From positions 1 to 42,311 of the forward strand of contig NZ_MBLO01000027.1 of assembly GCF_001854805.1 (NCBI RefSeq): a DNA stretch of 42,311 nucleotides, in the 5' to 3' direction. The DNA is from Pseudofrankia coriaricola (lineage in GTDB: Bacteria; Actinomycetota; Actinomycetes; Frankiales; Frankiaceae). Within the stretch, counting starts at the first letter, position 1, and each line of letters begins with the position of its first letter. Shown here piece after piece: positions 4,066 to 23,212 of this stretch. The notes beneath the pieces are model-generated. The model had not been told where the DNA came from. It saw nothing but the letters and a program-made list of their open reading frames with translations, and did no database searches. A program made the position numbers and the translations under genes.

Positions 4066-4257
4066 AATCCCACCGCCGCCATCCGCATGCGCCGACTCCC
4101 GCCGACGCGCCCGGCTGTCAATCCTGGCCATCCTGGACATGAGCCCAAAGATGGTCCCCATCGGCACACCGGAAAACCACCTCTTTACCCTGACCCCTCA
4201 GCCTGGATGCACCGATCCATTTCGGCGGTCAATCGAGTTGATCTGTAACGGCTATTG

Positions 4258-4353
4258 ACTGACGCCCAGGACGCACTCGGCTTTGCTCCCTCCGTCGTCT
4301 TCGAAGGCCCCATCGACACCGTGGTGCCCGGCGACGTCGCCACGCGTGGGAAA
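4258..4353 (+). pseudogene. DevS-like sensor kinase fragment
   Basis: About 30 codons in one frame read TDAQDALGFAPSVVFEGPID followed by TVVPGDVA. This matches the region just before the ATP-binding N box of DevS-type GAF histidine kinases. The intact kinase at 20577-22322 has DAEAGLGFAP and GPLDTVV at residues 469-490. Nothing of the kinase precedes or follows, so it is an isolated remnant bordered directly by a phosphatase fragment. Confidence 0.6.
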
Positions 4354-4361
4354 CCGCGGCC

Positions 4362-4424
4362 ATGGCTTGCCATCCCGGCGACGCTGTGATCGTGTACACG
4401 GACGGGCTGATCGAGGCCCGTTGA
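4362..4424 (+). pseudogene. SpoIIE-type phosphatase C-terminal fragment
   Basis: Twenty codons plus stop read MACHPGDAVIVYTDGLIEAR. HPGD and YTDGLIEAR form the conserved metal-binding core near the C-terminus of SpoIIE/RsbU PP2C-type phosphatases. The rest of the domain (normally more than 200 residues) is missing. It sits within 10 bases of a DevS-like fragment and meets a minus-strand patatin fragment at its 3' end. A complementary N-terminal SpoIIE piece lies at 22502-22681. Confidence 0.55.
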
Positions 4425-4553
4425 TCGCGCCGACCGAGGTGCCGACCACCAGGTCCGGCCGGATCCCGGCGTCGAGCAGGGCGCGAGCATGACCACCTCG
4501 CTTGCCCCGAGTACACCGCTGCCGCCGAGGACGAAGGCCACCGGCCGCGTCAC
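4417..4553 (-). pseudogene. Patatin-like phospholipase N-terminal fragment
   Basis: From a GTG at 4553, with GGGGAGC just upstream, the frame reads [20 protein letters not shown]. After one frameshift near 4483 it continues RALLDAGIRPDLVVGTSVGA. This is the glycine-rich oxyanion loop and the GXSXG nucleophile elbow (GTSVG) of bacterial patatin-like lipid acyl hydrolases. The protein ends there; the catalytic Asp and everything C-terminal are lost at the junction with the SpoIIE fragment. Non-functional remnant. Confidence 0.65.
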
Positions 4554-4961
4554 CGTCGCTCCCCACCGTCTAACGCCGGCTGGCGGCGGACGACGGCGAC
4601 CGGGCAGGTGGCGTGCAGCACGCACTGCGAGCTGGTGGAACCGAGCAGCAACTCGGCGAAGCCGCCGCGGCCCCGGGCGCCGACCACGAGCATCTGGGCG
4701 CGTGCCGCCGCGTTGATGAGCCGTGGGCGGCGGTGCCCATGATCAGGCGTGTGTTCACGTCGAGGCCCGTCCGGCCGGTGAGACCCGCGCTGGTCGACTC
4801 GTCCAGCACGGCCTGCGCGGCGTCGCGGAATACCTCGTCGCCGAGGCCGGTCCGGGCGGTGAGGGTCGGTGCTGGCTCCCAGGCGTGTCCACCGCCCAGC
4901 GCAGCGCCCGCTCGGCGTCCGCGGAACCGTCGATCCCCACGACGATGTCTGCTTCCGCCAC
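4550..4961 (-). pseudogene. Universal stress protein, frameshifted
   Basis: A GTG at 4961 follows an excellent Shine-Dalgarno (GGAGGAGATGAC). The N-terminus reads [20 protein letters not shown], a typical USP start. The frame then breaks. The middle ([20 protein letters not shown]) and the end ([40 protein letters not shown]) lie in two other frames. The ATP-binding signature G-2X-G-9X-G(S/T) is intact in the last part. At least two frameshifts, and probably a small internal deletion, separate the pieces. It is a recently decayed single-domain USP of the kind found in DosR/DevR regulons. If the frameshifts were sequencing errors it would be a normal gene. Confidence 0.75.
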
Positions 4962-5300
4962 GTCATCTCCTCCCACAGGAGTCGCACCAGGATTCTCGCG
5001 GGTGGTCTGCCTGACACTCGCGACTACAGCGAGCACGTCGCCCGGCGCATCTGGCCGGCGTGACCGGCGGCTTCTCCTCCCAGCCGGGGCCCCGCGGCAG
5101 AGGTCGGCGTCCGCGTCAGCGAAGGACCTGCCCGCGATCGCGGGAGGGTCGGCGGCCAGACGTTTCTGACCAACACACAGCGGCTAGACACTCCGTGGGT
5201 AGTCATCCCCGGCGCCCGGACGTCGACACCCCGCGTCTACGTGCGTAGCAGGCGAATCCGCGGATGGCGCGGCACCGCCTGACGGAGGGAGAAAGAGATC
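4962..5300. other. Intergenic, no gene supported
   Basis: About 340 bases between the divergent USP pseudogene and a small plus-strand gene. It presumably contains both promoters. I found no protein similarity on either strand and no convincing DevR-like box or hairpin. Confidence 0.4.
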
Positions 5301-5483
5301 GTGGTTGCTGATCAGGAGGCGCGCATCGCGCTTTTGGAAAGGCAGATCGTCGCGCTCACGGAGGCGGTCCGGGTCATCGCCCGTGGGCTTGAGTCCCCGC
5401 CCGTCGAGGATGAGCCCTTCGAAGCGACGGCGGAGCGGGCAGCCAGGCAGGCTCACGAAATGTTGCTCTCCGCCGGCCTGTAA
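5301..5483 (+). CDS. Small hypothetical protein (60 aa)
   Basis: A 60-residue protein starting with GTG at 5301, supported by GGAGGGAG at 5284-5291. Residues 5-27 (EARIALLERQIVALTEAVRV) are heptad-like and amphipathic, suggesting a short coiled coil. The C-terminal half is acidic then helical (EATAERAARQAHEMLLSAGL). No catalytic motif and no membrane segment are visible. I do not recognise a family. It lies among stress-gene remnants and may be one of the few intact survivors, for example a small adaptor or regulator; that is a guess. Confidence 0.5.
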   Translation: MVADQEARIALLERQIVALTEAVRVIARGLESPPVEDEPFEATAERAARQAHEMLLSAGL

Positions 5484-5581
5484 CCAGGGTCGCGGAGCCG
5501 GACCTGCCCACGAGGCGGCAACGACCCAGTTCCGGCCTCCCGGAGGGAAAGGATGTCCCGCACCGCCACGACCTTGCCTGT

Positions 5582-5667
5582 GGCCATGGCGGCTTCGCTG
5601 AGCTGCTGCTTGGTTCCACCAGCCGAGCCTGCATGCCGCGCGCCCGTGGCCGTCGTGCCCGGGGTAG
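5582..5667 (+). pseudogene. Universal stress protein C-terminal fragment
   Basis: The plus strand reads [17 protein letters not shown], then after a one-base shift RAPVAVVPG. This is the ATP-binding and last-strand segment of a USP, about 28 residues. It is the same segment preserved in the pseudogene at 4550-4961 but in opposite orientation. It runs directly into the FBP aldolase/phosphatase fragment. Confidence 0.6.
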
Positions 5668-5674
5668 ACACCCG

Positions 5675-6268
5675 ATGGAGCGCTTCTCGACAGATACGCC
5701 AGGTTCATCGACGTTGGGCGAGCAGGCGGAGGCGACGAGCACCCAGCGGCTGTCCCTGATCGCGGGGAAGTATGTCGGTAAGGACGATCGAGTGATGATC
5801 GTGCGCTGCCAGTCCGGGCTGCCCTCGATCGGCGAGGCGTTGGAGCCTTTCGCGCTGGCCTACACGGTCGGCGGCTCCATGCGCGGCTCGCACCACGCGC
5901 CACTGATGCCGGTCTCGACCGCCCAGGCGCACCCGTCCCGCTTCGACGGCCCCCCGCGGGTGGTCTGCCTCGGCTTCCAGATCACCGGCGGCCGGCTGAT
6001 CGGCCCGCGCGACATGTTCGACGACCCGGCCTTCGACCGGGCCCGGGCACAGGCCAACGAGGTCATGGACTACCTGCGCCGGCACGGCCCGTTCGAACCG
6101 CACCGGCTCGGCCTCGACGAGCTCGAGTACACCACCATGCCCGCGCTGGAGGACAGGCTCGCCGACCGCTGGCAGGCCCTGCCCGCCCCGGCGGCTCCCG
6201 CCGAAACCGCGCGGCGTCCAGCCGCCATTGATCTCCGTGCACGGCCCGGCCGTCAGCTCCGGTCGTGA
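5675..6268 (+). pseudogene. FBP aldolase/phosphatase, C-terminal fragment
   Basis: From about 5744 the frame matches the C-terminal third of the bifunctional fructose-1,6-bisphosphate aldolase/phosphatase (the archaeal/thermophile-type gluconeogenic enzyme). Diagnostic stretches are GKYVGKDDRVMIVRCQSGLP, YTVGGSMRGSHHAPLMPVS, RFDGPPRVVCLGFQ and HGPFEPHRLGLDELEYTT. The N-terminal two thirds, with the metal-binding and Schiff-base residues, are absent from a normal length of about 370-400. The ATG at 5675 merely opens the frame just after a USP fragment. A truncated, almost certainly inactive copy. Confidence 0.75.
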
Positions 6269-6346
6269 CGCCGACGCCCTGATCCGGACGAGTCCGCCCC
6301 GAGCGCGGAGAGGCCTCCGCTGGTCTTTCGAGCAGGGAGCGACGCT

Positions 6347-6869
6347 GTGCGAGCGACCATCGCGTTGGGACGGATCGCCGGGGTCCGGGTCGGGGTCCAC
6401 TGGAGCGTGCTGCTCATCTTCGGCATCATCACGTTCGGCCTCGCGCAAGACCGCCTCCCACAGGCGTATCCGGGCCGTGCCCTGGTGCTGTACTGGGTGG
6501 CGCCCTTGGCGCCGCGGTTGCCTTCTTCATCTCCCTGCTCGCCCACGAGGTGGCGCACGCCGTGATGGCCCGGCGCAACGGGGTGGCCGTGGATGACATC
6601 GTGCTGTGGCTGCTGGGGGCGTGGCCCGGCTGAAGTCGGAAGCGTCGAGCCCGGCGGCGGAGCTGCGGATCGCGGGCGTCGGCCCCCTGGTCAGCCTCCT
6701 GCTGGGCGGACTCTTCGCGCTGGGCGCCTGGCTGCTCGCCTTGGCGTCCGCGTCCGGGCTCCTAGTCGACGTGGTGGCCTGGCTGGCGGACGTCAACCTG
6801 CTGCTCGCCGTCTTCAACGCCCTTCCGGCCGCTCCACTCGACGGCGGACGGCTGCTGCGTGCCTGGATC
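6347..6869 (+). pseudogene. Site-2 protease (M50 family), frameshifted and truncated
   Basis: The GTG at 6347 follows AGGGAG. The first frame reads [20 protein letters not shown], the first membrane segment of M50 metalloproteases. A frameshift near 6496 leads to [18 protein letters not shown], with the zinc-binding HEVAH. A second shift near 6617 leads to GGVARL and then [17 protein letters not shown], with the third zinc ligand Asp in the LDGG motif. The actinobacterial homologues I know are about 370-390 residues, with two CBS domains at the end. Here the protein ends directly after [10 protein letters not shown] and is fused in frame to a PEP synthase tail. Intramembrane protease of the type near DosR-regulon genes in mycobacteria; inactive here unless the two shifts are sequencing errors. 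Confidence 0.75.
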
Positions 6870-7271
6870 ATGGCCGAGGTCCCGTCGGTGGCCTACTGGA
6901 TCCCCGCCTACGCCCGGCTCGGCATCGACGGGGTGTCGATCGGGTCGAACGACCTGACCCAGCTCGTTCTCGGCGTCGACCGCGACTCCGAGACGTGCGC
7001 GGAGCTGTTCGACGAGTCCGACCCGGCCGTGTTGGACGCCATCGCACGGATCATCGGAGCCTGCCGGGAGGCCGGGATCACCTCGTCACTGTGCGGCCAG
7101 GCGCCTTCCAGCCGGCCCGACTTCGCCGAACACCTGGTGCGGCTCGGCATCACGTCGGTGTCGGTGAACCCGGACGCGGTCGACGCGGCCCGGCGAGTGA
7201 TCGCGGCGGCCGAGCGACGATTGCTGCTATCCGCCGCCCGCGGCCGGACCGGCGCATCCCCACCCGGGTAG
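6870..7271 (+). pseudogene. PEP synthase C-terminal fragment fused to protease remnant
   Basis: About 134 codons match the C-terminal PEP/pyruvate-binding TIM-barrel end of phosphoenolpyruvate synthase (pyruvate + ATP to PEP). Motifs are [10 protein letters not shown], the near-invariant [20 protein letters not shown] and the catalytic-cysteine loop [20 protein letters not shown]. The ATP-grasp and phospho-histidine domains are absent from a total of about 800 residues. It is in frame with the site-2 protease remnant, so the junction near 6870 is a deletion or recombination point. The stop lies 50 bases before the convergent ATPase. Confidence 0.8.
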
Positions 7272-7320
7272 GTCTTGTCGAGTAGGCATGGGCGCGGTGC
7301 GTTACGCCCGTCCCGAACGG

Positions 7321-9135
7321 CTACGCGGCAGCGGTCCGTTCACGGCGGCGGTGGTCGGCTCGCCACAGTTCGTCGGCGCCCCAGACGAGGACGGGCATGG
7401 GCAGCAGGAGGAGCAGGTTCACAGGGTTGACGGCAACGGTGTCGAGCACGGGGTGCAGGAACGGCAGGTAGACGACGGCGGCCGCGAAGGCGACCTCGAA
7501 GAGGATGCCGTAGAGCGGGGTGGCGAGCGTCTCGCAACGCTCGAGGACCGCTTCCGGGGCGCCCTTGACGAAGGCGACGAACCGACCCGGCGCGGTCTCG
7601 TCCACCGTGGTCATCCGGCGCAGCCTTGGGTCGAACGGCGCCTCCAGGCGTCGCCGCGCGAGCCGCGAGGCGCGCCCGGTGTCCGCCCTCAGCCATGCGG
7701 CCGCCTGCAGCAGCCCGATCTCGGTGGGGTCCCCCCGGTCCTCGCTCTCCTCGGGCTCGCTGAGTTCGGCGTCCGGCTCGGGCAGCCCGGGCCGGACACT
7801 GTCGTCGCTGGGCTCCTCGGGTGGGATCCCCTGTCTCGTCTGGTACGTGTCGCCAGCGAGCTGGGCGTTCGAGCAGCTCGCCAGCGCCGTCCGGAGCGCC
7901 GCGAGCACGGGGGCCGACCGGTCCACCGCAGTCTCGTCGCCGCCGGTCGAAGCAGCCCAGTTCACGCCGTCGACGGCAAGGTCACCGGCTGTGGTCCACA
8001 ACCGGACCGGGCGCATCCGGTTCTCGGTGAGAGTGCCGGTCTTGTCCGTGCAGATGACAGTGGTCGAGCCGAAGGTCTCGACGGCGGACAGCCGGCGCAC
8101 GACCGCGCCGCGCCGGGCCAGCACCCGCACGCCGACCGCGAGCGCGAGGGTGATCGTCGGCAGCAGGCCCTCGGGCACGTTCGCGACCAGTAGCCCGATC
8201 GCGAACGTGAGCGCCTCGCCGAACGGCAGCCCGGCGGCCAGCCCGATCGGCAGGAAGGCGACCCCGACCCCGACCGCCACCGCGGCGATCAGCCACGCGA
8301 CCCGACGAACCTGTCGCTCCAGCGGGCTCTCGTCGCGCTGCACCCGCTCCGACAGCGCGGCGAGCCGGCCGATCTCGGTGTTCATCCCGGTCGCGACGAC
8401 CAGCACCCGCGCGGACCCGGCCGTGCAGGACGTGCCAGAGAAGACAAGGTCCTCGGCCGCGAGCAACGGGCCGGCGTCAGGTGTCTCGGCCGCCGAGCGG
8501 GCGACCGGCACCGACTCGCCGGTCAGCATCGACATGTCGACCTCGACGTAGCCGTCGAGAAGTCGCGCGTCGGCCGGCACCCGGTCGCCTTCACCAATCA
8601 GCAGCACGTCTCCGGGCACGATCTCCCGGACGGGCGCTCGCCGTTCGGCGCCGTCGCGCACGACGGTCGCCAGCGGCGGCAGGTAGGCGGCGAGCGCCTC
8701 GACGGCCTTCTCGGCGTGCTGTTCCTGGATGAACGCGACGGCGGCGTTGAGCAGCACGACGATGACGATCGCGACGGCCAGCGCCGTCGAGCCGGAGACC
8801 GCGGCGAGGACGGCGGCGAGCCACAGCAGCAGCGCCAGCGGATGAACGAGCTGACGGGCGATCTCACGCGGCCAGGTGCGCCCGCGCCGCCGGGACAGCT
8901 CGTTCGGCCCGGCGCTGACCAGGCGCCGGGCCGCCTCCCGCTCCGACAGACCGCTCCGCCCGGCGCGCAGATCACGCAGCAGCAGAGCGAGAGGCTCACG
9001 CGGGTCGGACACCGCCGCGGGACCAGGTTCGGCGGCGGTCCGGCCAGAGTCGTCGGGCGGCACCGGATCGGGATCCGTCGGTGGAACGCCGGAGGATTGC
9101 GTAGGCACCCTACGCTGACCGCTCGGCGGAGCCAC
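7321..9135 (-). CDS. P-type cation ATPase with large internal deletion
   Basis: A 604-residue frame of the P2-like P-type ATPases (usually about 900 residues). Present are M1-M2 (about 97-136), the actuator TGES (205-208), M3-M4 with VPEGL (about 279-337), the phosphorylation motif [10 protein letters not shown] (Asp364) and the nucleotide-domain KGAPE (524-528). At about residue 538 the sequence jumps to the last two membrane helices ([38 protein letters not shown]). The hinge TGD motif, GDGVNDAP and M5-M8, which contain the ion-binding residues, are missing. The deletion is exactly in frame. It cannot pump by the known mechanism, so it is best read as a pseudogene or regulatory remnant. A DevR-like box lies 37 bases upstream; the ATPase CtpF is a DosR target in M. 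tuberculosis. Confidence 0.85.
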
Positions 9136-9171
9136 GCGTCCAGCATCCGCGCGGGAGCGACGCGGCCGCGA

Positions 9172-9185
9172 CGGCCGATGGTCCC
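9172..9185 (-). promoter_or_regulatory. DevR-like box upstream of the P-type ATPase
   Basis: On the minus strand the sequence is GGGACCATCGGCCG, matching 10 of 14 positions of the mycobacterial DosR core GGGACTWWAGTCCC. It is 37 bases from the ATPase start. Found by eye; GC-rich chance matches are possible. Confidence 0.35.
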
Positions 9186-9242: not shown

Positions 9243-9821
9243 TCATCCAGTCGTGCCGATGGGCGCTCCGGCGGTCTCCCCCGCCGCGCCGCCCGTCGCC
9301 GGGCGGGCGGCGAGGTCCGCTGCCCAACGACGGGCCTGGTCGGGCTCGCCGTCGCGCAGCGGCCCTCGAGTGCCAGTGACGTAGAAGCTGCGCCGGCCGA
9401 CGACGTTCGCGCCGCGCCGTCGCAGCAGGCGCGCCGCCTTCGCCGCGGCGGAGCCGGCCAGCGGGGAGCGCGCCCTGGTGTCGAAGACGGCCACGGCCGG
9501 CGCCGGGCGGCCAAGCTCGACGCTGGCCAGCCACTCCCGGATCCCGATGCCCGGCGAGATCACGCCGTTCTCGACGGCGGGGCCTTCGGCGTCGGCGGCC
9601 AGCTGGCGGGCGGCGTCCTGCCGGCTGTTAGGCCGGCTCATGCCCAGGACGTGGGTGGGGCCGCCGACGACCAGCAGGTCGACGTCGCTGGTCAGCGTGG
9701 TGGGCGCGGCGCCGACCTCGACCAGCTCGGCGTCCATCCGCTCCCCGAGGCTGGCCGCGACCGCCTCTGCGATCTCCTTGGTGTTGCCGAACATCGACTC
9801 GAAGACGACCAGTGCGCGCAT
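9243..9821 (-). CDS. Flavodoxin-like protein
   Basis: A 192-residue protein with a flavodoxin fold. The N-terminus MRALVVFESMFGNTKEIAEA contains the FMN-phosphate loop (residues 8-14), and VDLLVVGGPTHVLGMS is the typical third strand and isoalloxazine-contact loop. The C-terminal 25 residues are Gly/Ala-rich and probably disordered. ATG at 9821, with GGAGCGGG upstream. Likely a soluble electron carrier or FMN-dependent quinone reductase; partner unknown. It is divergent in length from classical flavodoxins (about 140-170) but belongs to the flavodoxin family common in actinobacteria. It stands alone between the ATPase and the ABC exporter. Confidence 0.85.
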   Translation of the reverse strand: MRALVVFESMFGNTKEIAEAVAASLGERMDAELVEVGAAPTTLTSDVDLLVVGGPTHVLGMSRPNSRQDAARQLAADAEGPAVENGVISPGIGIREWLASVELGRPAPAVAVFDTRARSPLAGSAAAKAARLLRRRGANVVGRRSFYVTGTRGPLRDGEPDQARRWAADLAARPATGGAAGETAGAPIGTTG

Positions 9822-13119: not shown

Positions 13120-13947
13120 TCAGACGGCCGACGTCAGCGCATCCGGCGCCTCGGGCGCCGAAGGAGACGAAGGTGCTGGCGGCGAGGCCGCCATCGAGGA
13201 GGCGGAGGGTGCCGAGGGCACTGGCCCGTTCGCGGGCGCGCGGCGTTCGTCGCTGATCAGCGCGCCGTCGCGCATGCGGATCAGCCTGCCCGCGGCAGCG
13301 CCGATCCCCGGGTCGTGGGTAACCAGGATGATCGTCTGTCCCTCGTCCCGGTTGAGCGTCCGCAGCAGGTCCATGACCTGCGCCGCCATCTCACTGTCCA
13401 GGTTCCCGGTCGGCTCGTCGGCCCAGACGATCGCCGGGCGGGCCACCAGGGCCCGCGCGATCGTCACCCGCTGCTGCTCGCCGCCGGACAGCTCGTTCGG
13501 CCGGTGCGCGCCGCGCGCACCCAGCCCGACCCGCTCCAGCATGTCGGCGGCTCGCCTACGGGCCTGCGCCGGAGCGACGCCGACGAGCAGCAGCGGAAGC
13601 TCCACGTTCTCGACCGCGGTAAACACCGGGATGAGGTTGAAGGCCTGGAAGACGAAACCCATCGTGCGGGCGCGGTGCTCGGTGCGCCTGGCGTCCGGCA
13701 TCGCGAACAGGTCGACGCCGCCGAGTATCACCCGGCCGCCATCAATGTCGTCCAGCCCGGACAGGCAGTTAAGCAGCGTCGTCTTCCCGGATCCCGACGG
13801 GCCCATGACCGCGACGAGCTCACCGGCCTCGACCTCGAGGTCGAGGCCGCGCAGCGCCTCCACCTCGACGGCGCCGGTCCGGTAGATCTTGCGTACGCCT
13901 TCGGCGCGTAGCAGAGGGGTGGCGGTCATCCCGCTCTTCTCGACCAT
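13120..13947 (-). CDS. ABC transporter ATP-binding protein, LolD/MacB type
   Basis: The ATPase partner of the downstream FtsX-type permease. It has Walker [10 protein letters not shown], a Q-loop ([20 protein letters not shown]), the signature [19 protein letters not shown], Walker [14 protein letters not shown] and the H-loop LVTHD. The last 40 residues are a Pro/Ala/Ser-rich tail, unusual for this family. The open frame extends upstream to 14202, but that part has no ABC similarity. I prefer ATG 13947, with ATG 13929 as an alternative; neither has a strong Shine-Dalgarno. A DevR-like box lies about 60 bases upstream of 13947. Confidence 0.92.
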
Positions 13948-14005
13948 GATTTCAGCGAACCATCGGCACCAAATCGCCACCATGTGCCCACCGTGTGCAC
14001 GCCTC

Positions 14006-14019
14006 GGGACCTTTGGACT
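14006..14019. promoter_or_regulatory. DevR-like box upstream of the ABC exporter
   Basis: GGGACCTTTGGACT, flanked by CCTC and GACC, matches 9 of 14 core positions of the DosR consensus. It lies about 60 bases before the ABC ATPase start. Position and motif are compatible with DevR control of the exporter operon; by-eye evidence only. Confidence 0.35.
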
Positions 14020-14041
14020 GACCCGGGGGGCGTATCCGCGC

Positions 14042-14363: not shown

Positions 14364-14945
14364 TCAGACCAGGTATGGGCGGTCGCGGACGATCGGGGTG
14401 CGGGCCCAGGCGCCGCCGAGGCCGAAGGACCGGCCGGCGTTCAGCGCGGCCAGCAGGATCAGGGTGAGCGCGTAGATGAGGTGGTCGTCCATGAAGACGT
14501 TGTTCTCGGGGGGCAGGACGACCGTCCACATCATGACGAGCAGGACCGTGCCGGCACCGGCGGCGGCGCGCATCCCGATCCCGAGGATCAGCGCGGTGCC
14601 GATGGCGGCGAGGCCAATCATGAAGAGGTAGTCGGCCCAGGCGGCGCCGGCGATGTCGTTGTAGAACGACTTGAACGGGCCGACCGCACCGTGTGCCAGG
14701 AAGCCTTCGGTGGGGCTGCCGCCATGAATCCAGGCCGCCTTCGACGCGGTCTCGTGGCCGAGGCCGAACAGCTTGTCGAGGAACGCCCAGAGGAAGACCC
14801 ATCCGAGACTGACCCTGGTCAGCGCGAGCACGATGTCCAGCGCCAGGCCGCGGGCGCCGGCACGCTGCCGGAACAGCGTCGAGAAAGGCGACGAGACGAC
14901 CGAGCCGGACCGCGCCCCGACCTTGGCGTTGGTGGTGGTTGTCAT
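14364..14945 (-). CDS. DoxX-like membrane protein
   Basis: A 193-residue protein with about four membrane segments. Visible hydrophobic stretches are LDIVLALTRVSLGWVFLWAF, DYLFMIGLAAIGTALILGIG, AGTVLLVMMWTVVL and LIYALTLILLAAL. This is the DoxX/DoxD fold (thiosulfate:quinone oxidoreductase small subunit and relatives). The sequence FLDKLFGLGHETASKAAWIH and the NNVFMDDHLIYA region are typical of actinobacterial members. The ATG at 14945 has a very good RBS (GGAGGTCGAAAGCAC); the frame continues upstream to 15299 but that part is not protein-like. Possible role: membrane redox or quinone-linked function under low oxygen. The actual substrate is unknown. Confidence 0.88.
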   Translation of the reverse strand: MTTTTNAKVGARSGSVVSSPFSTLFRQRAGARGLALDIVLALTRVSLGWVFLWAFLDKLFGLGHETASKAAWIHGGSPTEGFLAHGAVGPFKSFYNDIAGAAWADYLFMIGLAAIGTALILGIGMRAAAGAGTVLLVMMWTVVLPPENNVFMDDHLIYALTLILLAALNAGRSFGLGGAWARTPIVRDRPYLV

Positions 14946-15052: not shown

Positions 15053-15183
15053 GTGCCGTCTGTAGGGCCGATCGGCCCACCTGCCGCGGGAAGGCCAGAG
15101 AGGCTCCGGGCGAGCCGACGGAAGGGCATGCCTCGGCCGGGCTGCCACTCGTCGTGGCCGAACAAATCAGCCGGAGACGCGGC

Positions 15184-15379: not shown

Positions 15380-16354
15380 CTAGGTGGACAGGGCGGCGCC
15401 GGCCGTCGCGGCCGATTCGTCCACTGGGGCGGGAAGCCGGTCGGAGCGCACGACGGCGACGTCGCTGTCCGCGTGCAGCACGCACTGGTTGCTGACCGAA
15501 CCGAGCAACAGCCGAGCGAAACCGCCGTGCCCCCGGCTGCCGACGACCAGGAGCTGCGCCTCGCGGGCCTCGCGCAACAGGGCACGGATCGCAGATTCGG
15601 GCGAGACGACCGACTCGACGGTGAGGCGCGGGGCGTCGGCCAGGCCCAGCTTGACGGCCTGCGCGAGGACCTCGTCTGCCTGCTTGACCAGCAATCCCTG
15701 CGCCCCGACAAGCACTTCGGCGTACATCGGGTCATAGCCACCCCAGGCGTGGATCACCCGCAGCGGCACCTTACGGACGGCCGCGGCGTGCGCGGCCCAG
15801 CGCAGCGCCGTAAGCGACGGGTCCGACCCGTCGACGCCGACGACGACCGGCCGGCGGTCGTCGACCCGTGGGGTCTCGTCCTCCTTGGGCGGGCGGACGA
15901 CGACGACGGGCCCCGGCGCGTGGTGGACGACCCCCTGGCTGACCGAGCCCGCGGTCATCCGGTGGATCGGCCCATGGCCACGCTCCCCGATGACGACCAT
16001 GTCGGCATCCGCGGCCGCCGCGGTGAGAGCCGCGACCGGGTCGTCCAGGACAACGGTGCGCCGAAGCGTGACCGACGCCGGCGGCTCGCCCACCCGCCTG
16101 ATCGAACGCTCCAGCATCTCGGTAGCCGCCTTGGTCATCCCATCATGGTTGCCCTGGGCCACGGCGCGCAGCACGCCCGTCGGCAGCCCGTCCGCGGTCC
16201 AGGCCAGCAGGGCGGTCACCGTCGGGGCAGCACCCCGGCCGGCGCCGTCCGTCGCGGCGGACCACAGCGCCGCCTCTCGAAGCGCCCACCTCAGCGCGGC
16301 CTCCGAGCCAGGAGAGCCGTCAACTCCGACAAGAATGCGTACCGAGCTGCTCAC
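15380..16354 (-). CDS. Universal stress protein, two tandem USP domains
   Basis: A 324-residue protein of two UspA domains. Domain 1 starts VRILVGVDGSPGSEAALRWA and ends with the ATP-binding signature GERGHGPIHRMTAGS. Domain 2 starts RRPVVVGVDGSDPSLTALRW and ends GSRGHGGFARLLLGS. Both fit G-2X-G-9X-G(S/T), so both halves should bind ATP. Tandem USPs of about 300 residues are typical DosR-regulon members in mycobacteria. Start GTG at 16354, with GGAG seven bases upstream. This is the only intact USP in a window that contains three other USP fragments. Cytoplasmic; role in hypoxia or stationary-phase adaptation inferred from the family and from the nearby devRS. Confidence 0.92.
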   Translation of the reverse strand: MSSSVRILVGVDGSPGSEAALRWALREAALWSAATDGAGRGAAPTVTALLAWTADGLPTGVLRAVAQGNHDGMTKAATEMLERSIRRVGEPPASVTLRRTVVLDDPVAALTAAAADADMVVIGERGHGPIHRMTAGSVSQGVVHHAPGPVVVVRPPKEDETPRVDDRRPVVVGVDGSDPSLTALRWAAHAAAVRKVPLRVIHAWGGYDPMYAEVLVGAQGLLVKQADEVLAQAVKLGLADAPRLTVESVVSPESAIRALLREAREAQLLVVGSRGHGGFARLLLGSVSNQCVLHADSDVAVVRSDRLPAPVDESAATAGAALST

Positions 16355-16732
16355 GCCTCACGCTCCACGTCCGGTGCGGCACGTCGCCGTGCCCGCTGTG
16401 ACGGCCCACCACTTTCCGACACCGATCTGGGGCGATCGGGCGGAAGCAGAACTGGCCGGTGATCGACCTCCCTGACTGTTCCACCGGAATGGACCGACGA
16501 GACCGCGCCATGCGGCGGTCCACGAGGGTGCATTGGGCCGGCACGCCTGGGCCGGTTGGCCGGGTGGCAGAGCGCACCTCGGCGTTTCACCCGGCCTTCA
16601 GGGTCGGTCTTCTACCCCATTGGTCCAGTCTCGCGTGACGACTCGGACCATCCATCTCAGAGCCGTCCGGCCAAGAATGGACACGCACGGCGCCGACATG
16701 CAGAAGCAGGTCACAGCGTAGGGAGGCGCGCT
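16355..16732. other. Divergent intergenic region, no gene supported
   Basis: A 378-base region between the minus-strand USP and a plus-strand hypothetical gene. It must hold both promoters. I found no DevR-like box scoring above half the positions and no protein similarity. Confidence 0.4.
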
Positions 16733-17456: not shown

Positions 17457-18794
17457 ATGATTGGGATATCACCCGTCCGCCATCAGCCGTCCCGTTTCCC
17501 CGACAGGGTTGATGCCGCGTCGCACTGGGTCGATCTGGACGGACCGACGCACTATGTCGATTTCGGGGGCCCACAGCGCGGGCCACTGCTGGTCTGCGTG
17601 CATGGTCTTGGCGGTTCCCATCTCAACTGGTTCGCGCTCGCGCCCCGGTTGACCCTGTCGTGCCGTGTCCTGGCCGTGGACCTGGCCGGCCACGGCCTGA
17701 CCCAGGCCCTGGGGCGACGCACGACTGTCGAGGCCAACGTGCAGTTGCTCGGCAGGTTTCTTCGAGAGGTCGTGGGCACGCCCGCGATCCTGGTAGGAAA
17801 CTCGATGGGTGCGATGATCGCGGTCCTGGCGACCGCAGCCGACCCGGACGCCGTGGCCGGCCTCGTCCTGATCGACCCGGCTCTGCCCGCGCGACCGGGC
17901 GGACATCCAGGGGTATTGATGAGCCTGGGCATTCTTGGCTACGCGCTCCCTGGCGTTGGCAGAGCCCTCGTCACAGCATCGCGGCGCTGGGCAGGGGCCA
18001 CACGTGGCATCGAGTCAACCTTGAAGGTGTGCTGCGTTGACTCCACGCGGGTGCCGGCTGACCTCGTTGAGCGCTCCGTCGAGCTGGCCGAACGGCGCTT
18101 GTCCTATCCAGGTACCGAGTCTGACTTCCTGCACGCATTTCACAGCACCCTGCGGGCCCTGGTCACTCCCGCACGTTACGAGGCGACCATGGGCGGGATA
18201 CGGCAGCCGGTTCTGCTTCTCCACGGAGAGAAGGATCCACTGGTGTCGGTGGAAGCGGCCAAACGGGCCGCCCGCCCGCGGTGGGCGTTCGACGTGGTGC
18301 CCGACGGGCGAGGTGGTAGACGCGTTGCGGGCGTCCGTCCGCCGTCCACGCGACGAGCGCCGAAATTGCTGCCGGACGGAGCGTCGCCTCGTGACACGCC
18401 CATCGCAGCGCCGCCTCCGAGCCAGGTGATCCATCGATGCCGACGAGTATTCGCATGGGGTGGGTTGGTGCGTCAGCGCGGTCCATGGTGCACCTTCCGG
18501 GTCGCGGTTCGCTCGCTCGGTACCACTGTCCCTTTGGGCGCCTCGGCGGACATCGGCCGTCAGGCTGGCCGTCGCGGTGCGTTGGTCCCCGTCCCGGCGG
18601 GGCTGCAGTCTCCTGACACCGGCGACCATCGAGTCATGCGGGGTGGTCCCAGAGGTCCGTTCCTCCCACCAGACCGGACCGACCGCCTCAGGATCGTGCC
18701 GGATAACGCAGGCAGAGTGGTCACGCGAGCGAAGAACGGCCCGCGACACGGACTAGGAGGGTCGAGATGCCGCACTCCCGGTCATCCCCGATGA
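17457..18794 (+). CDS. Alpha/beta hydrolase, truncated before the catalytic His
   Basis: ATG at 17457 after AAAGGAAG. Residues about 1-285 form an alpha/beta hydrolase: oxyanion region VCVHGLGGSHLNW, the Asp-Leu-x-Gly-His loop AVDLAGHGLT, nucleophile elbow VGNSMGAM and catalytic-Asp region LLHGEKDPLVSVEAAK. The fold should continue from FDVVPD into a GHxP motif with the catalytic histidine. Instead it breaks at about 18310 into the antisense of a USP fragment. The frame stays open by chance to 18794, overlapping the SsgA-like start by 28 bases. The last 160 residues are therefore not hydrolase. Probably inactive; substrate unknown. Confidence 0.75.
   Translation: MIGISPVRHQPSRFPDRVDAASHWVDLDGPTHYVDFGGPQRGPLLVCVHGLGGSHLNWFALAPRLTLSCRVLAVDLAGHGLTQALGRRTTVEANVQLLGRFLREVVGTPAILVGNSMGAMIAVLATAADPDAVAGLVLIDPALPARPGGHPGVLMSLGILGYALPGVGRALVTASRRWAGATRGIESTLKVCCVDSTRVPADLVERSVELAERRLSYPGTESDFLHAFHSTLRALVTPARYEATMGGIRQPVLLLHGEKDPLVSVEAAKRAARPRWAFDVVPDGRGGRRVAGVRPPSTRRAPKLLPDGASPRDTPIAAPPPSQVIHRCRRVFAWGGLVRQRGPWCTFRVAVRSLGTTVPLGASADIGRQAGRRGALVPVPAGLQSPDTGDHRVMRGGPRGPFLPPDRTDRLRIVPDNAGRVVTRAKNGPRHGLGGSRCRTPGHPR
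18325..18456 (-). pseudogene. Universal stress protein N-terminal fragment
   Basis: From ATG 18456 the minus strand reads MRILVGIDGSPGSEAALRWA, then ALVAWTADGRPQ. This is very close to the first domain of the intact USP at 15380-16354 (VRILVGVDGSPGSEAALRWA). It stops after about 44 residues at the junction with the alpha/beta hydrolase. A DevR-like box lies 63 bases upstream, so the promoter of the lost gene may survive. Confidence 0.75.
18519..18532 (-). promoter_or_regulatory. DevR-like box upstream of the USP fragment
   Basis: The minus strand reads GGGACAGTGGTACC, 10 of 14 matches to the DosR core, 63 bases before the USP fragment's ATG. By-eye match. Confidence 0.3.
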
Positions 18795-19231
18795 AGAAAA
18801 TCAGCTGCGACTTGCGCATCGGCTTGGTCATGGACAACGGAGAGCGGCTGCCCCTGACGGGCCATCTACGCTTTGACCCTGCTGACCCCATCGCGGTAAC
18901 ACTCGTCGTTCGGATGCCGGCCGACGAGACCGTCGCATGGACGTTCGCGCGCACCCTGCTCATGGCAGGAGGTCCTCGACCAGCCTCGGTGGGCGACGTG
19001 CGGGTCCAGCCGGTCCACGGTAATAAACGACGGGTCATGACGATCACGCTGACTGGCCCGGATGGCCACGCGGATCTGGAACTGCCATCTCAGCGGGTCG
19101 CTGCCTTTCTGCGCCACACCTACGAGGCCGTTCCGCCCGAGGTGGAAGCCGGTCTGATCGACTGGGACGCCGAGTTTGGACCGCTACTGGGGCTTGGAGG
19201 TACCCGAACGGAACGTCCGACCGACATGTGA
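18767..19231 (+). CDS. SsgA-like sporulation/cell-division protein
   Basis: A 154-residue protein with an RBS (AGGAGGGTCGAG) before ATG 18767. The body matches the SsgA/SsgB family throughout: LPLTGHLRFDPADPIAVTLV, ETVAWTFARTLLMAGG, SVGDVRVQPV, MTITLTGPDGHADLELP, and a C-terminal FLRHTYEAVPPEVEAGLIDW. SsgA-like proteins are restricted to morphologically complex actinomycetes and help position FtsZ during sporulation septation. It has no membrane segment. It is followed after 57 bases by a ribosome-hibernation-like gene and lies convergent to devR, which suggests a link between low-oxygen dormancy and cell division; that link is inference. Confidence 0.85.
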   Translation: MPHSRSSPMKKISCDLRIGLVMDNGERLPLTGHLRFDPADPIAVTLVVRMPADETVAWTFARTLLMAGGPRPASVGDVRVQPVHGNKRRVMTITLTGPDGHADLELPSQRVAAFLRHTYEAVPPEVEAGLIDWDAEFGPLLGLGGTRTERPTDM

Positions 19232-19288: not shown

Positions 19289-19666
19289 ATGACCAGTACT
19301 TCGCGGCTCGGTCCGGGAACCATCACGGTCCAGATCACCGGACCTGTTTCCCAGCCAGCACGTGACTACGCCGTGGAAAAGGTGAACGCGTTGGCACAGC
19401 TATGCCACGAGCCGATCCTGCATGCCCGGATCAGCCTCGACGCGGGCGGACGACCTGGCACCGTCCCCGCATCAGCGGCGGTGAGTCTGGACGTCAATGG
19501 GACACCGGTACGGGCACGGGCGGAGGGAACGACGCTACGTGAGGCGATCGACCTTCTCCAGGCGCGGCTGAGGACGAGACTTCTGCGATATGAGGACCGC
19601 CCGCACCGAGGCCAGCCAGTCCGGACGGGCCCGTCCGCCCGGCCCGAGGACGAGCACGAAGCCTGA
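19289..19666 (+). CDS. HPF/RaiA-like ribosome-associated protein, N-terminal domain only
   Basis: A 125-residue protein with strong RBS GGAGGAA before ATG 19289. It resembles the N-terminal domain of actinobacterial hibernation-promoting factors: TITVQITGPVSQPARDYAVE, then ARISLDAGG, AAVSLDVNGTPVRARAEG and TLREAIDLLQARLRTRLLRY. The C-terminal dimerisation domain of long HPF (total about 230-260) is absent. The mycobacterial DosR-regulon protein Rv0079 also carries a divergent HPF-like N-terminal domain, so a dormancy role at the ribosome is plausible. Co-directional with the SsgA-like gene, and probably the same operon. Confidence 0.7.
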   Translation: MTSTSRLGPGTITVQITGPVSQPARDYAVEKVNALAQLCHEPILHARISLDAGGRPGTVPASAAVSLDVNGTPVRARAEGTTLREAIDLLQARLRTRLLRYEDRPHRGQPVRTGPSARPEDEHEA

Positions 19667-19750: not shown

Positions 19751-20425
19751 TCACGGGGCCGAGCTCTCCCCTCCAAGGTGCTTGTACGCAAGGACGGCGG
19801 CCTGGGTGCGGCTGGTCAGCCCGAGCTTGTCCAGAATGCTCGACACGTAGTTCTTGACGGTCTTCTCGGACAGGTGGATGCGCGTCCCGATCTGACGGTT
19901 GGTGAGTCCTTCGGCGACGAGCCCCAGGATCTCGCGTTCGCGGGGGCTGAGCTCCGCCAGGACCGGGTCCTGCTTCGGTCCTTCGCGCAACCGGGCGAGC
20001 ACCCGCTGCGTGACCGACGGCGACAGCAGCGACTGGCCGGACGCCACCGTCCGGATCGCGCCCACCAGGTCAGTGCCGCGGATCTCCTTGAGCACGTAGC
20101 CCGCGGCGCCAGCCATGATGGCGGAGAAGAGGGCCTCGTCATCGTCGTAGGAGGTCAGGATCAGGCAGGCGACGTCCGGATGCGTCGACCGGATCTCGCG
20201 GCAGACGTCGATGCCGCTGCCGTCGGGGAGCCGGCCGTCGAGGATCGCCACGGTGGGCGTCAGGGCGGGTATACGCCGCAGCGCTTCCGCCGCGAGCCCC
20301 GCCTCTCCCACCACTTCGATGTCGTCATGACGTTCCAGGGTCCGCCGGAGACCATCCCGCACGATTTCGTGGTCGTCGAGGATGAATACCGTAATCTTCT
20401 CCACGCCGAGGACGATACGCGGCAC
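19751..20425 (-). CDS. devR: DevR/DosR-type response regulator
   Basis: A 224-residue NarL/LuxR-family regulator. Receiver domain: acidic pair DD17-18, phospho-acceptor Asp63 in ILDGRLPDGSGID, Thr91 in LILTSYDDDEAL and Lys113. LuxR-type HTH at about 159-215 (LSPREREILGLVAEGLTNRQ, LSEKTVKNYVSSILDKLG, RTQAAV). The LILTSY, GYVLKEI and TNRQI/EKTVKNYV blocks closely resemble M. tuberculosis DosR, the hypoxia/NO/CO dormancy regulator. ATG at 20425; GTG at 20404 (VEKITVFILDDHE) is an alternative that fits the family start better. The cognate kinase is just upstream, separated by a hairpin, and a DevR-like box lies about 40 bases before the start, suggesting autoregulation. Confidence 0.92.
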   Translation of the reverse strand: MPRIVLGVEKITVFILDDHEIVRDGLRRTLERHDDIEVVGEAGLAAEALRRIPALTPTVAILDGRLPDGSGIDVCREIRSTHPDVACLILTSYDDDEALFSAIMAGAAGYVLKEIRGTDLVGAIRTVASGQSLLSPSVTQRVLARLREGPKQDPVLAELSPREREILGLVAEGLTNRQIGTRIHLSEKTVKNYVSSILDKLGLTSRTQAAVLAYKHLGGESSAP

Positions 20426-20463
20426 GACTGGGGCCGATATCCGGCGATCGGAGTGGTGACCTC

Positions 20464-20477: not shown

Positions 20478-20547
20478 GCGAGGCGCACGTCGAACGACCG
20501 CAGCGAGCGCACTTCGGCGGGGTCTTCGATGATCGCGGAAGGTCCTA

Positions 20548-20575
20548 CCGCCCCGGCTGCGCGCAGCCGGGGCGG
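20548..20575 (-). terminator. Perfect palindromic hairpin between devS and devR
   Basis: A perfect 28-bp palindrome (CCGCCCCGGCTGCG and its complement) begins two bases after the devS stop codon. It has no U-tract. It should terminate or attenuate devS transcription and reduce read-through into devR. Confidence 0.65.
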
Positions 20576-20576
20576 C

Positions 20577-22322
20577 CTAGATCGGAGCGGTCCAGCGCAG
20601 GTGGGTGCCGCCCCCGACGGGAACCGCCAGCGTGAACGTCCCGTCGAGTGACTCGGCACGTTCTCGCAGGTTGGCCAGGCCGCTGCGGCGGACCGTCTCC
20701 CCGATTCCCACGCCATTGTCCTCGGCGTCGACGACGACCTCGTCGTTCTCCAGGCGCACGCTGATCCGCAGCGTGGTGGCGCGGGAGTGGCGGGCCGCGT
20801 TGGACACCGCTTCCCGTATCACCGCGAGCACGTGGGTGACCAGCGTTTCACCGACGACCGTGTCCAGAGGGCCGGCACAGGTCACCGTCGGCGCGAAGCC
20901 GAGCCCGGCTTCGGCGTCCCTGGCGATCTTCTCGATCGTGGCGCGCAGACTGCCGCGCCCGAGCTGGGCGCTTCCCCGCAGCTCGAAGATCGACCGTCGA
21001 ATATCCTTGATCGTCGCGTCGATGTCCTCGACGAAGCCGTTCAGGCGGTCGGCGTTCGCGGTGCTCTCGTACTGCGCCACGTCCTGGACACCCAACGCGA
21101 CAGCGAACATCCGCTGGATCACGTGGTCATGAAGGTCACGGGCAATCCGGCCGCGGTCGGCGAGCACCACGAGCCGTTCTCGCTCGGACTTGGCGCGGGC
21201 GAGCTCGAGGCCAACCGCCACGTGGCCGGCGAAGCTCGATGCCATGTCGAGCTCCGCGGCCGTGAACGCCCGACGCCCGCGGGCGTGTCCCAGAAGCAGA
21301 ACGCGGCGGTCGGCGTCCGTGCCGGCTCGCAGCGGCACGGCGATGAGGGACCCGACGTCAGAGACTCGTTCCAGATCGCAGGCGTCCACGTCGGCATTGC
21401 CGGTGAGCACGGGGCGCTGTTCGGCGAAGACGCGCCCGGCCAGGCTGCTGTCAAGGGGGATCGCGTTCCCCCCGATATCTGCTCCGGCGGCGACCTCCAC
21501 GATCGCGGAGACGGGGTCACCGCCGCGGACGACCATGGCCGCGTAGTCGGCACGCGCGGTGGTTCGAGCCCGCTCGACAACCAGCACGATCGGGTCGGAC
21601 GGGTCCGCCATGACCTCGTGAGTCACCTCGGCCGACGCACTCATCCACTGGTGCCGCTGCTGCGCTTCGTCGAACAGCCGGGCGTTGTCGATCGCGACGC
21701 CGGCGGTGGCCGCCAGGGCGAGCGCGAGTTCCTCGTCCTCGGCGGTGAACGCCCGGCCGTCGCGTTTCTCGGTCAGGTACAGGTTGCCGAAGACCTCGCC
21801 CCGCACGGTGATGGGCACGCCGAGGAAGGTGTGCATCGGCGGGTGCCCCGGCGGGAAACCGACGGCGTTCGGGTCGCGGGCGATGTCGCCCACTCGGCGG
21901 GGACGCGGGTCGTCGATCAGAACGCCCAGCACACCGTGGCCAGTCGGTAGGTGGCCGATGTGTGCCACGTCCGCGGAGTCCATGCCGACGTGGACGAACT
22001 CCTCGAGAGTTCGATCCGGCGCCACCACCCCCAGCGCCCCGTATCGCGCGTCGAGGAGTTCGCAGGCAGCCTCGACCACCTGTCGTAGCAGCGTTGGTAG
22101 GCGCAGGTCGGTCGTGACCATCCGGTTGGCGCGCAACAGGCCGCGCAACCGGCCCTGGGTGGCCATGACGTCCTGGGCACGTTCGACCAGCTGGGCAAGC
22201 AGCTCATCGAGCTCGAGGCGACCAACGGTCGGAAACATCAGGTCGTCGCCGACGGAAGGCGACGCTGGTCGTCGTGCATCGGACGGTTCGACCCGAACCT
22301 CGGGCCGGGTGACTGCGTCCAC
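20577..22322 (-). CDS. devS: DevS/DosT-type GAF sensor histidine kinase
   Basis: A 581-residue cytoplasmic kinase: two GAF domains (about 70-215 and 235-375), dimerisation/phosphoacceptor helix and HATPase. GAF-A contains HIGHLPTGHGVLGVLIDDPR and GFPPGHPPMHTFLGVPI. His160 in HPPM sits where, from memory, the proximal haem ligand (His149) of M. tuberculosis DevS is found. The phosphoacceptor is His398 in RIARDLHDHVIQRMF. The N box is VIREAVSNAARHS (502-513), G1 DNGVGIG (535-541) and G2 SGLANLRERAESLDG. It therefore looks able to sense O2/NO/CO or redox through haem and to phosphorylate DevR. Start GTG 22322 has a weak RBS; ATG 22238 is an alternative. Confidence 0.92.
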   Translation of the reverse strand: MDAVTRPEVRVEPSDARRPASPSVGDDLMFPTVGRLELDELLAQLVERAQDVMATQGRLRGLLRANRMVTTDLRLPTLLRQVVEAACELLDARYGALGVVAPDRTLEEFVHVGMDSADVAHIGHLPTGHGVLGVLIDDPRPRRVGDIARDPNAVGFPPGHPPMHTFLGVPITVRGEVFGNLYLTEKRDGRAFTAEDEELALALAATAGVAIDNARLFDEAQQRHQWMSASAEVTHEVMADPSDPIVLVVERARTTARADYAAMVVRGGDPVSAIVEVAAGADIGGNAIPLDSSLAGRVFAEQRPVLTGNADVDACDLERVSDVGSLIAVPLRAGTDADRRVLLLGHARGRRAFTAAELDMASSFAGHVAVGLELARAKSERERLVVLADRGRIARDLHDHVIQRMFAVALGVQDVAQYESTANADRLNGFVEDIDATIKDIRRSIFELRGSAQLGRGSLRATIEKIARDAEAGLGFAPTVTCAGPLDTVVGETLVTHVLAVIREAVSNAARHSRATTLRISVRLENDEVVVDAEDNGVGIGETVRRSGLANLRERAESLDGTFTLAVPVGGGTHLRWTAPI

Positions 22323-22501
22323 GGCGGGAGCATAGCGAAACCGAGTTCAGCAGGCCGTCTGTTCTCCGCATATCTGCGCATGCCTCCGCCTCACCTCACG
22401 CTGCTGGTGCCGTGCGGCGCCGGGCGTGTCAAGTACCAAGGGACGTCATTGAAGGCCGGCCAGGTCCTCGCCTGCCCCGATGCGTTGGTCAACCGAGACC
22501 G

Positions 22502-22681
22502 CTACCGCCATGTCACGGCGTCATGGCCCGCGGCGTCGCCGATCGTCACCGCCAGCCGACCGTCGTCGAGGCGGAAGGCGTCGATCCAGTCGCCGCCGAT
22601 GGCACCGCGGCCGGCCGGACGTCGGCGCCAGCAGGCCTGAATTCCGCCGCCGTCCCGCCGATGAATGCGGTGGGCCGTCAT
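22502..22681 (-). pseudogene. SpoIIE-type phosphatase N-terminal fragment
   Basis: ATG 22681 with AGGAG ten bases upstream. The 59-residue product contains RPAGRGAIGGDWIDAFRLDD and GRLAVTIGDAAGHD, the start of a PP2C/SpoIIE phosphatase domain including the first metal-binding aspartates (GGDW..D and GDAAGH). It then ends in a stop. The rest of the domain is lost; a matching C-terminal motif fragment exists at 4362-4424. SpoIIE-type phosphatases act on anti-anti-sigma factors and are often neighbours of USP and GAF kinases in actinobacteria. Confidence 0.6.
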
Positions 22682-22785
22682 CGTCACACGCTCCTGTTCC
22701 GCCGTCCCGTTACCACTGAGATCACCTCCTGTGGCCGCGGGAGGTTGGCGGGTCCCAGGATTGCCCACGAGCGGTGCCGTCGACA

Positions 22786-22800
22786 GGGACTTTCGGTCCT
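22786..22800 (-). promoter_or_regulatory. DevR-like box upstream of the SpoIIE fragment
   Basis: GGGACTTTCGGTCCT, with GGGAC and GTCCT half-sites. The half-sites are spaced five instead of four bases apart. This is the most dyad-like of the candidate boxes in the window, 105 bases upstream of the SpoIIE fragment start. Confidence 0.45.
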
Positions 22801-22802
22801 GC

Positions 22803-23212
22803 CCGCACGTCTCATAGGTCTGATCGCCACGCACGCCTGGCGCAGACGCTTGAACCCCGGGCGCCGCTACCGCCCACCACAGCCGGGATGGTTGGCCAGC
22901 CTGCGGGAGGCGCCGGGGTGATGCCGGTCGGGAGGCGTTTCTGTCGCCGTCGTCGGCCGAGGTGGATGGGGAACGCAGGCGCCAGCAGCCACCGGACGCG
23001 GCCGGCCCGCCGCCGCGACCACGCCCGCGGTCATCTGACGGGATCGACTCGACGGCCTCATCCGCGAATACCAGCAGGCAGCGTGACCGGACCCGATCTC
23101 GGGCACCCACAGGCCGACGGAAAAGGACCCAACCAGGGCACTTCGCCGGCGGCCTGCCCGACTCTGTGGGAGCGCGGGGTGCGATTCCCCCGGGCCACCC
23201 GACCAGAGTTGC
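22803..23212. other. Intergenic, no gene supported
   Basis: About 410 bases between the DevR-like box and the end of the luciferase-like oxidoreductase. Reading frames here are long only because of GC bias. A tRNA T-arm-like segment at 23174-23191 was considered and rejected. Confidence 0.4.

What the first reader, a model, noticed from the sequence alone, without database searches (positions are those of the whole stretch)
4250..22810. Decaying DevRS hypoxia/dormancy island with candidate DevR boxes
An intact devS-devR pair is surrounded by families typical of the mycobacterial DosR regulon: USPs, a P-type ATPase, a site-2 protease and an HPF-like protein. Six sequences resembling GGGACTWWAGTCCC lie in upstream regions at 9172, 14006, 15039, 18519, 20464 and 22786, each 37-105 bases before a start codon. 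Many of the presumed target genes are broken while the sensor pair is intact. The system may therefore retain control of a reduced set: ABC exporter, DoxX-like protein, tandem USP, SsgA-like and HPF-like.
Basis: partly seen in the sequence, partly recalled or inferred. Interest (0 to 1): 0.7.

Follow-up and report, generated by a model that had tools for sequence, protein, structure and literature searches.

The report
Partly decayed DevRS dormancy gene island
A soil actinomycete, probably a Frankia relative, carries a partly broken cluster of genes of the low-oxygen survival type, and its intact sensor-regulator pair still has conserved candidate DNA landing sites in front of itself and of several genes that remain.

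Summary
Largely real, and more ordinary than it sounded. The devS-devR pair is intact: DevR keeps the phospho-Asp and the EKTVKNYVS helix of M. tuberculosis DevR, DevS the heme His. A relative (G006) has an intact island; against it the window's P-type ATPase lacks about 390 residues, the dikinase is a C-terminal remnant and a CBS gene is missing.

The box claim is half right. The six sites differ from GGGACTWWAGTCCC at 3-5 positions. Three (14006, 20464, 22786) are footprinted in relatives. Two (15039, 18519) lie 26 and 57 bases from better conserved boxes (15065, 18576). One (9172) was not conserved. The best box, GGGCCGATCGGCCC at 15065, was missed: it is the Streptomyces OsdR core and occurs once in 11.2 Mb.

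Genome-wide counts do not exceed reversed-pattern controls; six USP genes elsewhere have no box upstream.

Best reading: a small local DevR regulon (devR, DoxX, ABC exporter, SsgA-like/HPF-like). DNA binding and hypoxic control are inferred. New member of a known kind.

The parts
19751..20425 (-). devR, NarL/LuxR-type response regulator, 224 aa
   Evidence: Response_reg + GerE; best PDB relative M. tuberculosis DevR 3c3w, E 5e-65, phospho-Asp and EKTVKNYVS kept; dN/dS against G006 0.16
20577..22322 (-). devS, GAF-GAF-HisKA_3-HATPase sensor kinase, up to 581 aa (start may be 22238)
   Evidence: Pfam; first GAF matches DevS-type heme GAF structures, best E 1.7e-50, proximal His kept; dN/dS 0.25 over 553 codons
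20462..20479 (+). DevR box upstream of devR, TCGGGACCTTCGTCATGC
   Evidence: TCGGGACCTTCG invariant in 5 of 5 aligned genomes while flanks diverge; rank 1 with the devR-promoter matrix
   Evidence: top OsdR-matrix score in window; only exact GGGCCGATCGGCCC in the genome; TGGGCCGATCGG conserved in G006 and G004; rank 11 with devR matrix
   Evidence: rank 9 with devR matrix; lies in the conserved DoxX promoter but varies among relatives
14364..14945 (-). DoxX-like membrane protein, 193 aa
   Evidence: weak DoxX match, below cut-off; 89% and 85% identical homologues in G006 and G004; dN/dS 0.18
14004..14021 (+). DevR box upstream of ABC exporter operon, TCGGGACCTTTGGACTGA
   Evidence: RGTCCRAAGGTCCY (other strand) conserved in window, G006 and G003
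13120..13947 (-). ABC exporter ATPase, intact
   Evidence: ABC_tran; 97% identical to G006 over 254 residues
10135..13095 (-). FtsX-type ABC permease, intact, 986 aa
   Evidence: 93% identical to G006 over the full length
9243..9821 (-). flavodoxin-like protein
   Evidence: weak flavodoxin matches; 80% identical to G006 over 172 residues
7321..9012 (-). P-type ATPase with an internal deletion of about 390 residues, frame kept (ORF could start at 9135)
   Evidence: residues 1-504 and 894-946 of the 959-aa G006 protein meet at 7516/7515
   Evidence: rank 3 with devR matrix but absent from the G006 and G022 upstream sequences
6621..7271 (+). chimeric ORF: M50 protease piece fused to dikinase-type C-terminus
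   Evidence: PF02163 residues 45-83, PF02896 residues 79-198
5714..6268 (+). C-terminal part of FBPase_3
   Evidence: profile positions 209-361 of 361
4550..5017 (-). USP fragment
   Evidence: PF00582 positions 73-141 only
15380..16354 (-). tandem USP, intact
   Evidence: two Usp domains; 89% identical to G006 over 277 residues
18310..18489 (-). N-terminal USP remnant, divergent from SsgA-like gene
   Evidence: PF00582 positions 4-42
18576..18589 (-). box candidate before SsgA-like/HPF-like, GGGACCAACGCACC on the minus strand
   Evidence: GGTGCKTTGGTCCC or near in window, G006, G004 and G003, not in the G005 sequence aligned; score only 7.1 with devR matrix
   Evidence: rank 7 with devR matrix but not conserved
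18767..19231 (+). SsgA-like protein, intact
   Evidence: PF04686, E 1.2e-27; matches in the G003, G004, G005 and G006 islands
19289..19666 (+). HPF-like (S30AE) protein, intact
   Evidence: PF02482, E 2e-7; matches in the G005 and G006 islands
22747..22823 (+). relic promoter-like patch with box AGGGACTTTCGGTCCT at 22785-22800; the CBS-domain gene that follows it in G006 (called start about 355 bases away) is absent
   Evidence: 82% identical to G006 over 78 columns, E 1.5e-17, no clear similarity beyond it; CBS gene not found in window

Best explanation
This is a two-component system of the DevRS/OsdKR type with a local set of target genes, partly eroded. Proposed working: DevS reads oxygen or redox state through a heme GAF domain (inferred), phosphorylates DevR (inferred), and DevR~P binds boxes of the form GGGACCTTYGGNC or GGGCCGATCGGCCC (sites shown, binding inferred). 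It acts before devR (autoregulation), the DoxX-like gene, the ABC exporter operon and, less surely, the SsgA-like/HPF-like pair. Genes for dikinase, ion transport and CBS functions have been lost or truncated; one box-bearing patch survives without its gene.
For: DevR and DevS homology with key residues kept. Box before devR invariant in 5 of 5 genomes aligned; DosR-type pattern upstream of devR in 7 of 13 relative loci, at a near-fixed place in 6 of 13. In 80 named actinobacterial loci the pattern is upstream of devR in 29 of 80 against 25 of 1450 control segments. The only exact OsdR core in the genome is at 15065; of 6 exact copies in 10 genomes, 4 lie in dev islands or just upstream of a devR homologue. 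Over nine island regions matrix sites are intergenic in 23 of 28, where 24% of bases are; a reversed matrix gives 11 sites. Local clustering: 3 of 28 and 2 of 10 pattern matches in 0.38% of the genome. Intact island in G006. Retained genes show dN/dS 0.12-0.34.
Against: Genome-wide pattern counts do not exceed reversed controls here: 28 v 28, 10 v 8, and 28 v 30 with one mismatch allowed; nor clearly in five relatives (29 v 24, 26 v 50, 21 v 39, 29 v 37, 16 v 27). Six USP genes elsewhere have no box upstream, and the window's tandem USP has no clear one. In 6 of 13 relative devR loci no DosR-type pattern was found upstream. The pattern tests were framed after the window had been read. The N-part of the truncated ATPase also shows dN/dS 0.22, so low dN/dS does not prove present function.
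Confidence: 0.8

Rival explanations
1. The boxes are used mainly by one of the two closest DevR homologues elsewhere in the genome (C58, 75%; C245, 67%), and the window pair is auxiliary or on its way out.
For: Both homologues exist; their loci also hold box-like sites, CCAGGACTTTGGTCCTAG near the C58 devR homologue and GCGGGACTTTCGACCCGT before the C245 devS homologue; in G003 an exact OsdR core lies just upstream of a devR homologue outside the island.
Against: The window devR has the strongest footprint and dN/dS 0.16; the boxes lie beside it. The DosR-type pattern itself was not found within 220 bases upstream of either homologue.
Confidence: 0.25
2. The island is a non-functional relic: sensor and boxes persist only because decay is recent.
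For: The truncated ATPase still shows low dN/dS; a box-bearing patch without its gene; several fragments.
Against: devS, devR, ABC, DoxX, SsgA-like and HPF-like frames are open, and the devR, DoxX and ABC boxes are conserved in relatives.
Confidence: 0.15
3. The boxes are chance matches in GC-rich DNA.
Against: Footprints, intergenic placement and control-matched enrichment upstream of devR.
Confidence: 0.05

Closest known systems
OsdK-OsdR (SCO0203-SCO0204) of Streptomyces coelicolor, Urem et al. 2016, PMC5069765 (abstract, sections 6 and 7 and found passages read)
   Same: Regulator amid a cluster with USPs, dikinase and nitroreductase; consensus AGGGCCGATCGGCCCT, whose 14-base core is at 15065; a site before the regulator itself; OsdR binds ssgB in vitro.
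   Different: Here devS precedes devR, an SsgA-like/HPF-like pair lies beside devR, a DoxX-like gene and an ABC exporter are boxed, and the cluster is eroded. Nitrate reductase was not noticed but not searched for.
DevRS/DosT of Mycobacterium tuberculosis
   Same: EKTVKNYVS helix identical; heme-type GAF; half site GGGACC/T; Gly at the position of DevS Glu87, as in DosT (numbering and meaning recalled).
   Different: Gene order, targets, and no genome-wide set seen here.
Intact dev island of an unnamed congener (G006, C1:3532001-3590000)
   Same: Same core genes and boxes; ABC, DoxX and USP2 about 89-97% identical.
   Different: Dikinase, P-type ATPase and CBS genes whole; NiFe-hydrogenase-type genes beside devR; the two gene blocks in another order.

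Membership tests
DevR/DosR/OsdR response regulators | NarL-type receiver plus LuxR HTH with conserved phospho-Asp and DosR recognition helix | tested here: met
   which residues matter is recalled
DevR/DosR/OsdR response regulators | recognises GGGACC/T-type or GGGCCGATCGGCCC sites | tested here: inconclusive
   sites present, conserved and clustered; binding not tested
DevR/DosR/OsdR response regulators | autoregulatory site before its own gene | tested here: met
   box at 20462 conserved in 5 of 5 genomes aligned; sequence evidence only
DevS/DosT/OsdK sensor kinases | tandem GAF, HisKA_3 and HATPase_c, proximal heme His in GAF-A | tested here: met
   residue identified by counting along the construct with recalled numbering
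DevS/DosT/OsdK sensor kinases | heme binding and response to O2, NO or CO | not testable with these tools
   needs purified protein
DosR-type dormancy regulon | multi-locus regulon with USPs under boxes | tested here: not met
   no genome-wide excess of boxes; 0 of 6 USP loci outside the window boxed upstream; so only a local, DevR-like target set is claimed
DosR-type dormancy regulon | hypoxic induction | not testable with these tools
   needs expression data

The most novel reading that the evidence does not exclude
In this lineage the DevR regulon has been stripped down to a local set in which one oxygen switch directly controls an SsgA-like cell-division/sporulation protein together with an HPF-like ribosome-hibernation protein, plus a DoxX protein and an ABC exporter, while the metabolic arm (dikinase, FBPase, P-type ATPase, CBS) decays and leaves a promoter without a gene: a regulon caught in mid-reduction.
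Probability: 0.4. Interest if true: 0.55.

Novelty: new member of a known kind. Interest (0 to 1): 0.42.

Why it matters
It extends the experimentally studied DevR/OsdR dormancy switch to what appears to be the Frankia lineage and gives precise boxes to test. Decayed and intact islands in near relatives make the loss of a bacterial regulon observable gene by gene, and place an SsgA-like and a ribosome-hibernation-like gene beside the same switch.

Tried and rejected
The exact copy at C256:1290 and the near copies at C244, C254 and C234 were looked at only through ORF lists; I saw no dormancy-type neighbour.

A symmetric matrix from the 26 OsdR sites of Table 1 finds 15064 and 22785 but scores DosR-type half sites low (20463 scored 2.9, rank 129), so it cannot serve alone. 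With it no fetched region shows more than about a two-fold excess at threshold 10.

The second matrix used 35 distinct sites drawn from 31 of the 80 named loci, which I picked because they carry such sites (not all 31 gave one), so its scores favour GGGAC sites; one training locus (L101) is Pseudofrankia. At thresholds 6 and 7 it gives no excess in the window.

Genome-wide regulon: looked for and not found. Of the eight GGGACYTTYGGNC matches outside the window three lie inside ORFs called as genes (L042, L043, L046); for the rest I recognised no dormancy-type neighbour.

DoxX upstream boxes: of 17 matched places 13 loci were examined, own included; 8 of 13 have either an OsdR-matrix score of 9 or more or the DosR pattern within about 320 bases, 5 have neither. 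Some loci share a genome, and no control was run for that set alone.

M50 and FBPase pieces gave no match (E 1e-4) in the 20 island stretches searched, so their source is unknown. Assembly or sequencing error behind some frame breaks cannot be excluded; no reads were available.

Print: 15 of 4,812 listed, none of them naming Frankia; 5 papers each, by title not on this subject; 10 of 87 listed. I saw listings only; the library is open-licence papers only.

The gene caller is a simple GC-position script and misses genes (SsgA-like and HPF-like in the window), so intergenic fractions are approximate.

Full report
Setting. The window is contig C27 of an 11.2-Mb, 280-contig genome.

Sensor pair. 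DevR (19751-20425, minus) has receiver and LuxR domains; its best solved relative is M. tuberculosis DevR (3c3w, E 5e-65). The aligned phospho-Asp, Thr and Lys are kept and the stretch EKTVKNYVS is identical (the roles of these residues are recalled). DevS (20577-22322, minus) has two GAF domains, HisKA_3 and HATPase_c. Its first GAF aligns with heme GAF structures of DevS and with 2vzw, which I recall as DosT; the proximal His and distal Tyr are kept, and the position of DevS Glu87 is Gly, as in 2vzw (residue numbers and the meaning of that Gly are recalled). Order is devS then devR, with 151 bases between.

Decay. In G006 a syntenic region carries USP2, DoxX, ABC ATPase, ABC permease, flavodoxin, an 840-aa dikinase, a 959-aa P-type ATPase, CBS proteins, devS, devR, HPF-like, SsgA-like and NiFe-hydrogenase-type genes. 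The window keeps ABC, DoxX, USP2, devS, devR, SsgA-like and HPF-like. Its ATPase joins residues 1-504 directly to 894-946, and only about residues 673-823 of the dikinase remain. The window also holds FBPase, M50 and USP fragments, with an in-frame M50/PEP-utiliser fusion at 6621-7271. The two gene blocks are in another order in G006. Against G006 the retained genes give dN/dS 0.12-0.34, but so does the N-part of the broken ATPase (0.22), so the break may be recent.

Boxes, site by site. None of the six sites is within 2 mismatches of GGGACTWWAGTCCC. (1) 20464: TCGGGACCTTCG is invariant in the window and in G003, G004, G005 and G006, in an otherwise diverging intergenic stretch. (2) 14006: RGTCCRAAGGTCCY is conserved in the window, G006 and G003. 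(3) 22786: an isolated patch of 78 columns at 82% identity to G006 contains it. In G006 the box points to a CBS-protein gene whose called start is about 355 bases away; the window lacks that gene, so the patch seems a promoter without its gene. The G003 and G004 sequences aligned there do not show it. (4) 15039: weak. Twenty-six bases away lies AGGGCCGATCGGCCCA (15064), the top OsdR-matrix site of the window, conserved as TGGGCCGATCGG in G006 and G004 upstream of DoxX. (5) 18519: not conserved; GGTGCKTTGGTCCC at 18576 is, in G006, G004 and G003, but not in the G005 sequence aligned. Its neighbourhood is also fairly alike in window, G006 and G004, and it scores only 7.1 with the devR matrix, so it is the least sure of the boxes I propose. 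(6) 9172: absent from the two relatives aligned.

Is it more than chance? The OsdR consensus core GGGCCGATCGGCCC comes from Streptomyces (PMC5069765). It occurs exactly once in this genome, in the window. Nine further genomes hold five copies, and none of the reversed control. Of all six, four lie in dev islands or just upstream of a devR homologue: the window; G006 before DoxX; G019, about 15 kb from devR on its contig, between genes that I read as acetate kinase and nitroreductase; and G003 before a devR homologue. Two (G020 C36, G003 C195) do not. The half-site pattern GGGACYTTYGK has 28 matches in this genome, 3 in the window; GGGACYTTYGGNC has 10, 2 in the window (Poisson 1.8e-4 and 7e-4). 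These patterns were written after seeing the sites, so the numbers are indicative. G003, G004, G005, G006 and G016 each have a GGGACYTTYGK match just upstream of devR.

Independent check of the motif. In 80 named actinobacterial loci with a DevR relative, the DosR-type pattern lies within 220 bases upstream of devR in 29 of 80, against 25 of 1450 control segments of the same loci. Across nine island regions (327 kb) 28 sites reach 12, 23 of them intergenic where 24% of bases are; the reversed matrix gives 11, 7 intergenic.

Results against. Genome-wide the patterns are no commoner than their reversed controls here, nor clearly so in five relatives. Ten USP matches exist in the genome, four of them in the window; the six elsewhere have no box upstream. 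The window's tandem USP has only a weak candidate near 16615. So I find a local, not a global, set.

Reading. The best-supported account is a DevRS/OsdKR-type oxygen or redox switch with a small local regulon: itself, DoxX, the ABC exporter operon, and probably SsgA-like plus HPF-like. Shown: genes, conserved residues, conserved boxes, loss of neighbours. Inferred: heme sensing, phosphorylation, DNA binding, hypoxic induction. OsdR binds the ssgB promoter in vitro (PMC5069765, passage), and M. tuberculosis DosR is linked to ribosome stability (a title seen in a reference list), so an SsgA-like/HPF-like target is in keeping with known biology. The five papers naming Frankia with DosR and the five naming Frankia with DevR are, by title, on other subjects (listings only).

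Noticed in passing
window 6621-7271: In-frame chimera of an M50 protease piece and the C-terminus of a PEP-utilising enzyme, possibly a deletion scar.
   Followed up: partly
window 22747-22823: Isolated promoter-like patch, 82% identical to G006, with a DevR box but without the CBS-protein gene that follows it in G006.
   Followed up: partly
L013 7191-11985 (G006): Genes with 4Fe-4S, cNMP-binding, 20-kDa NADH-oxidoreductase and NiFe-hydrogenase domains lie next to devR in the relative; no match to them was found in the window.
   Followed up: partly
G000 C256:1290, C244:51658, C254:40942, C234:163478: Perfect or one-mismatch GGGACTWWAGTCCC palindromes elsewhere in the genome, the first near ORFs that look LuxR-like to me; no dormancy genes seen beside them.
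   Followed up: partly
G000 C58 (L023:9784) and C245 (L024:13792): The two closest DevR/DevS homologues have box-like sites nearby, so more than one DevR may share the motif.
   Followed up: no
G005 C97:58740-58786: Five GGGACCTTCGG matches at 9-base spacing, a short tandem repeat that mimics DevR boxes.
   Followed up: no
window 23213-26266, 34362-35831, 40244-41095: Luciferase-like, MFS and Methyltransf_19 family genes outside the island.
   Followed up: no
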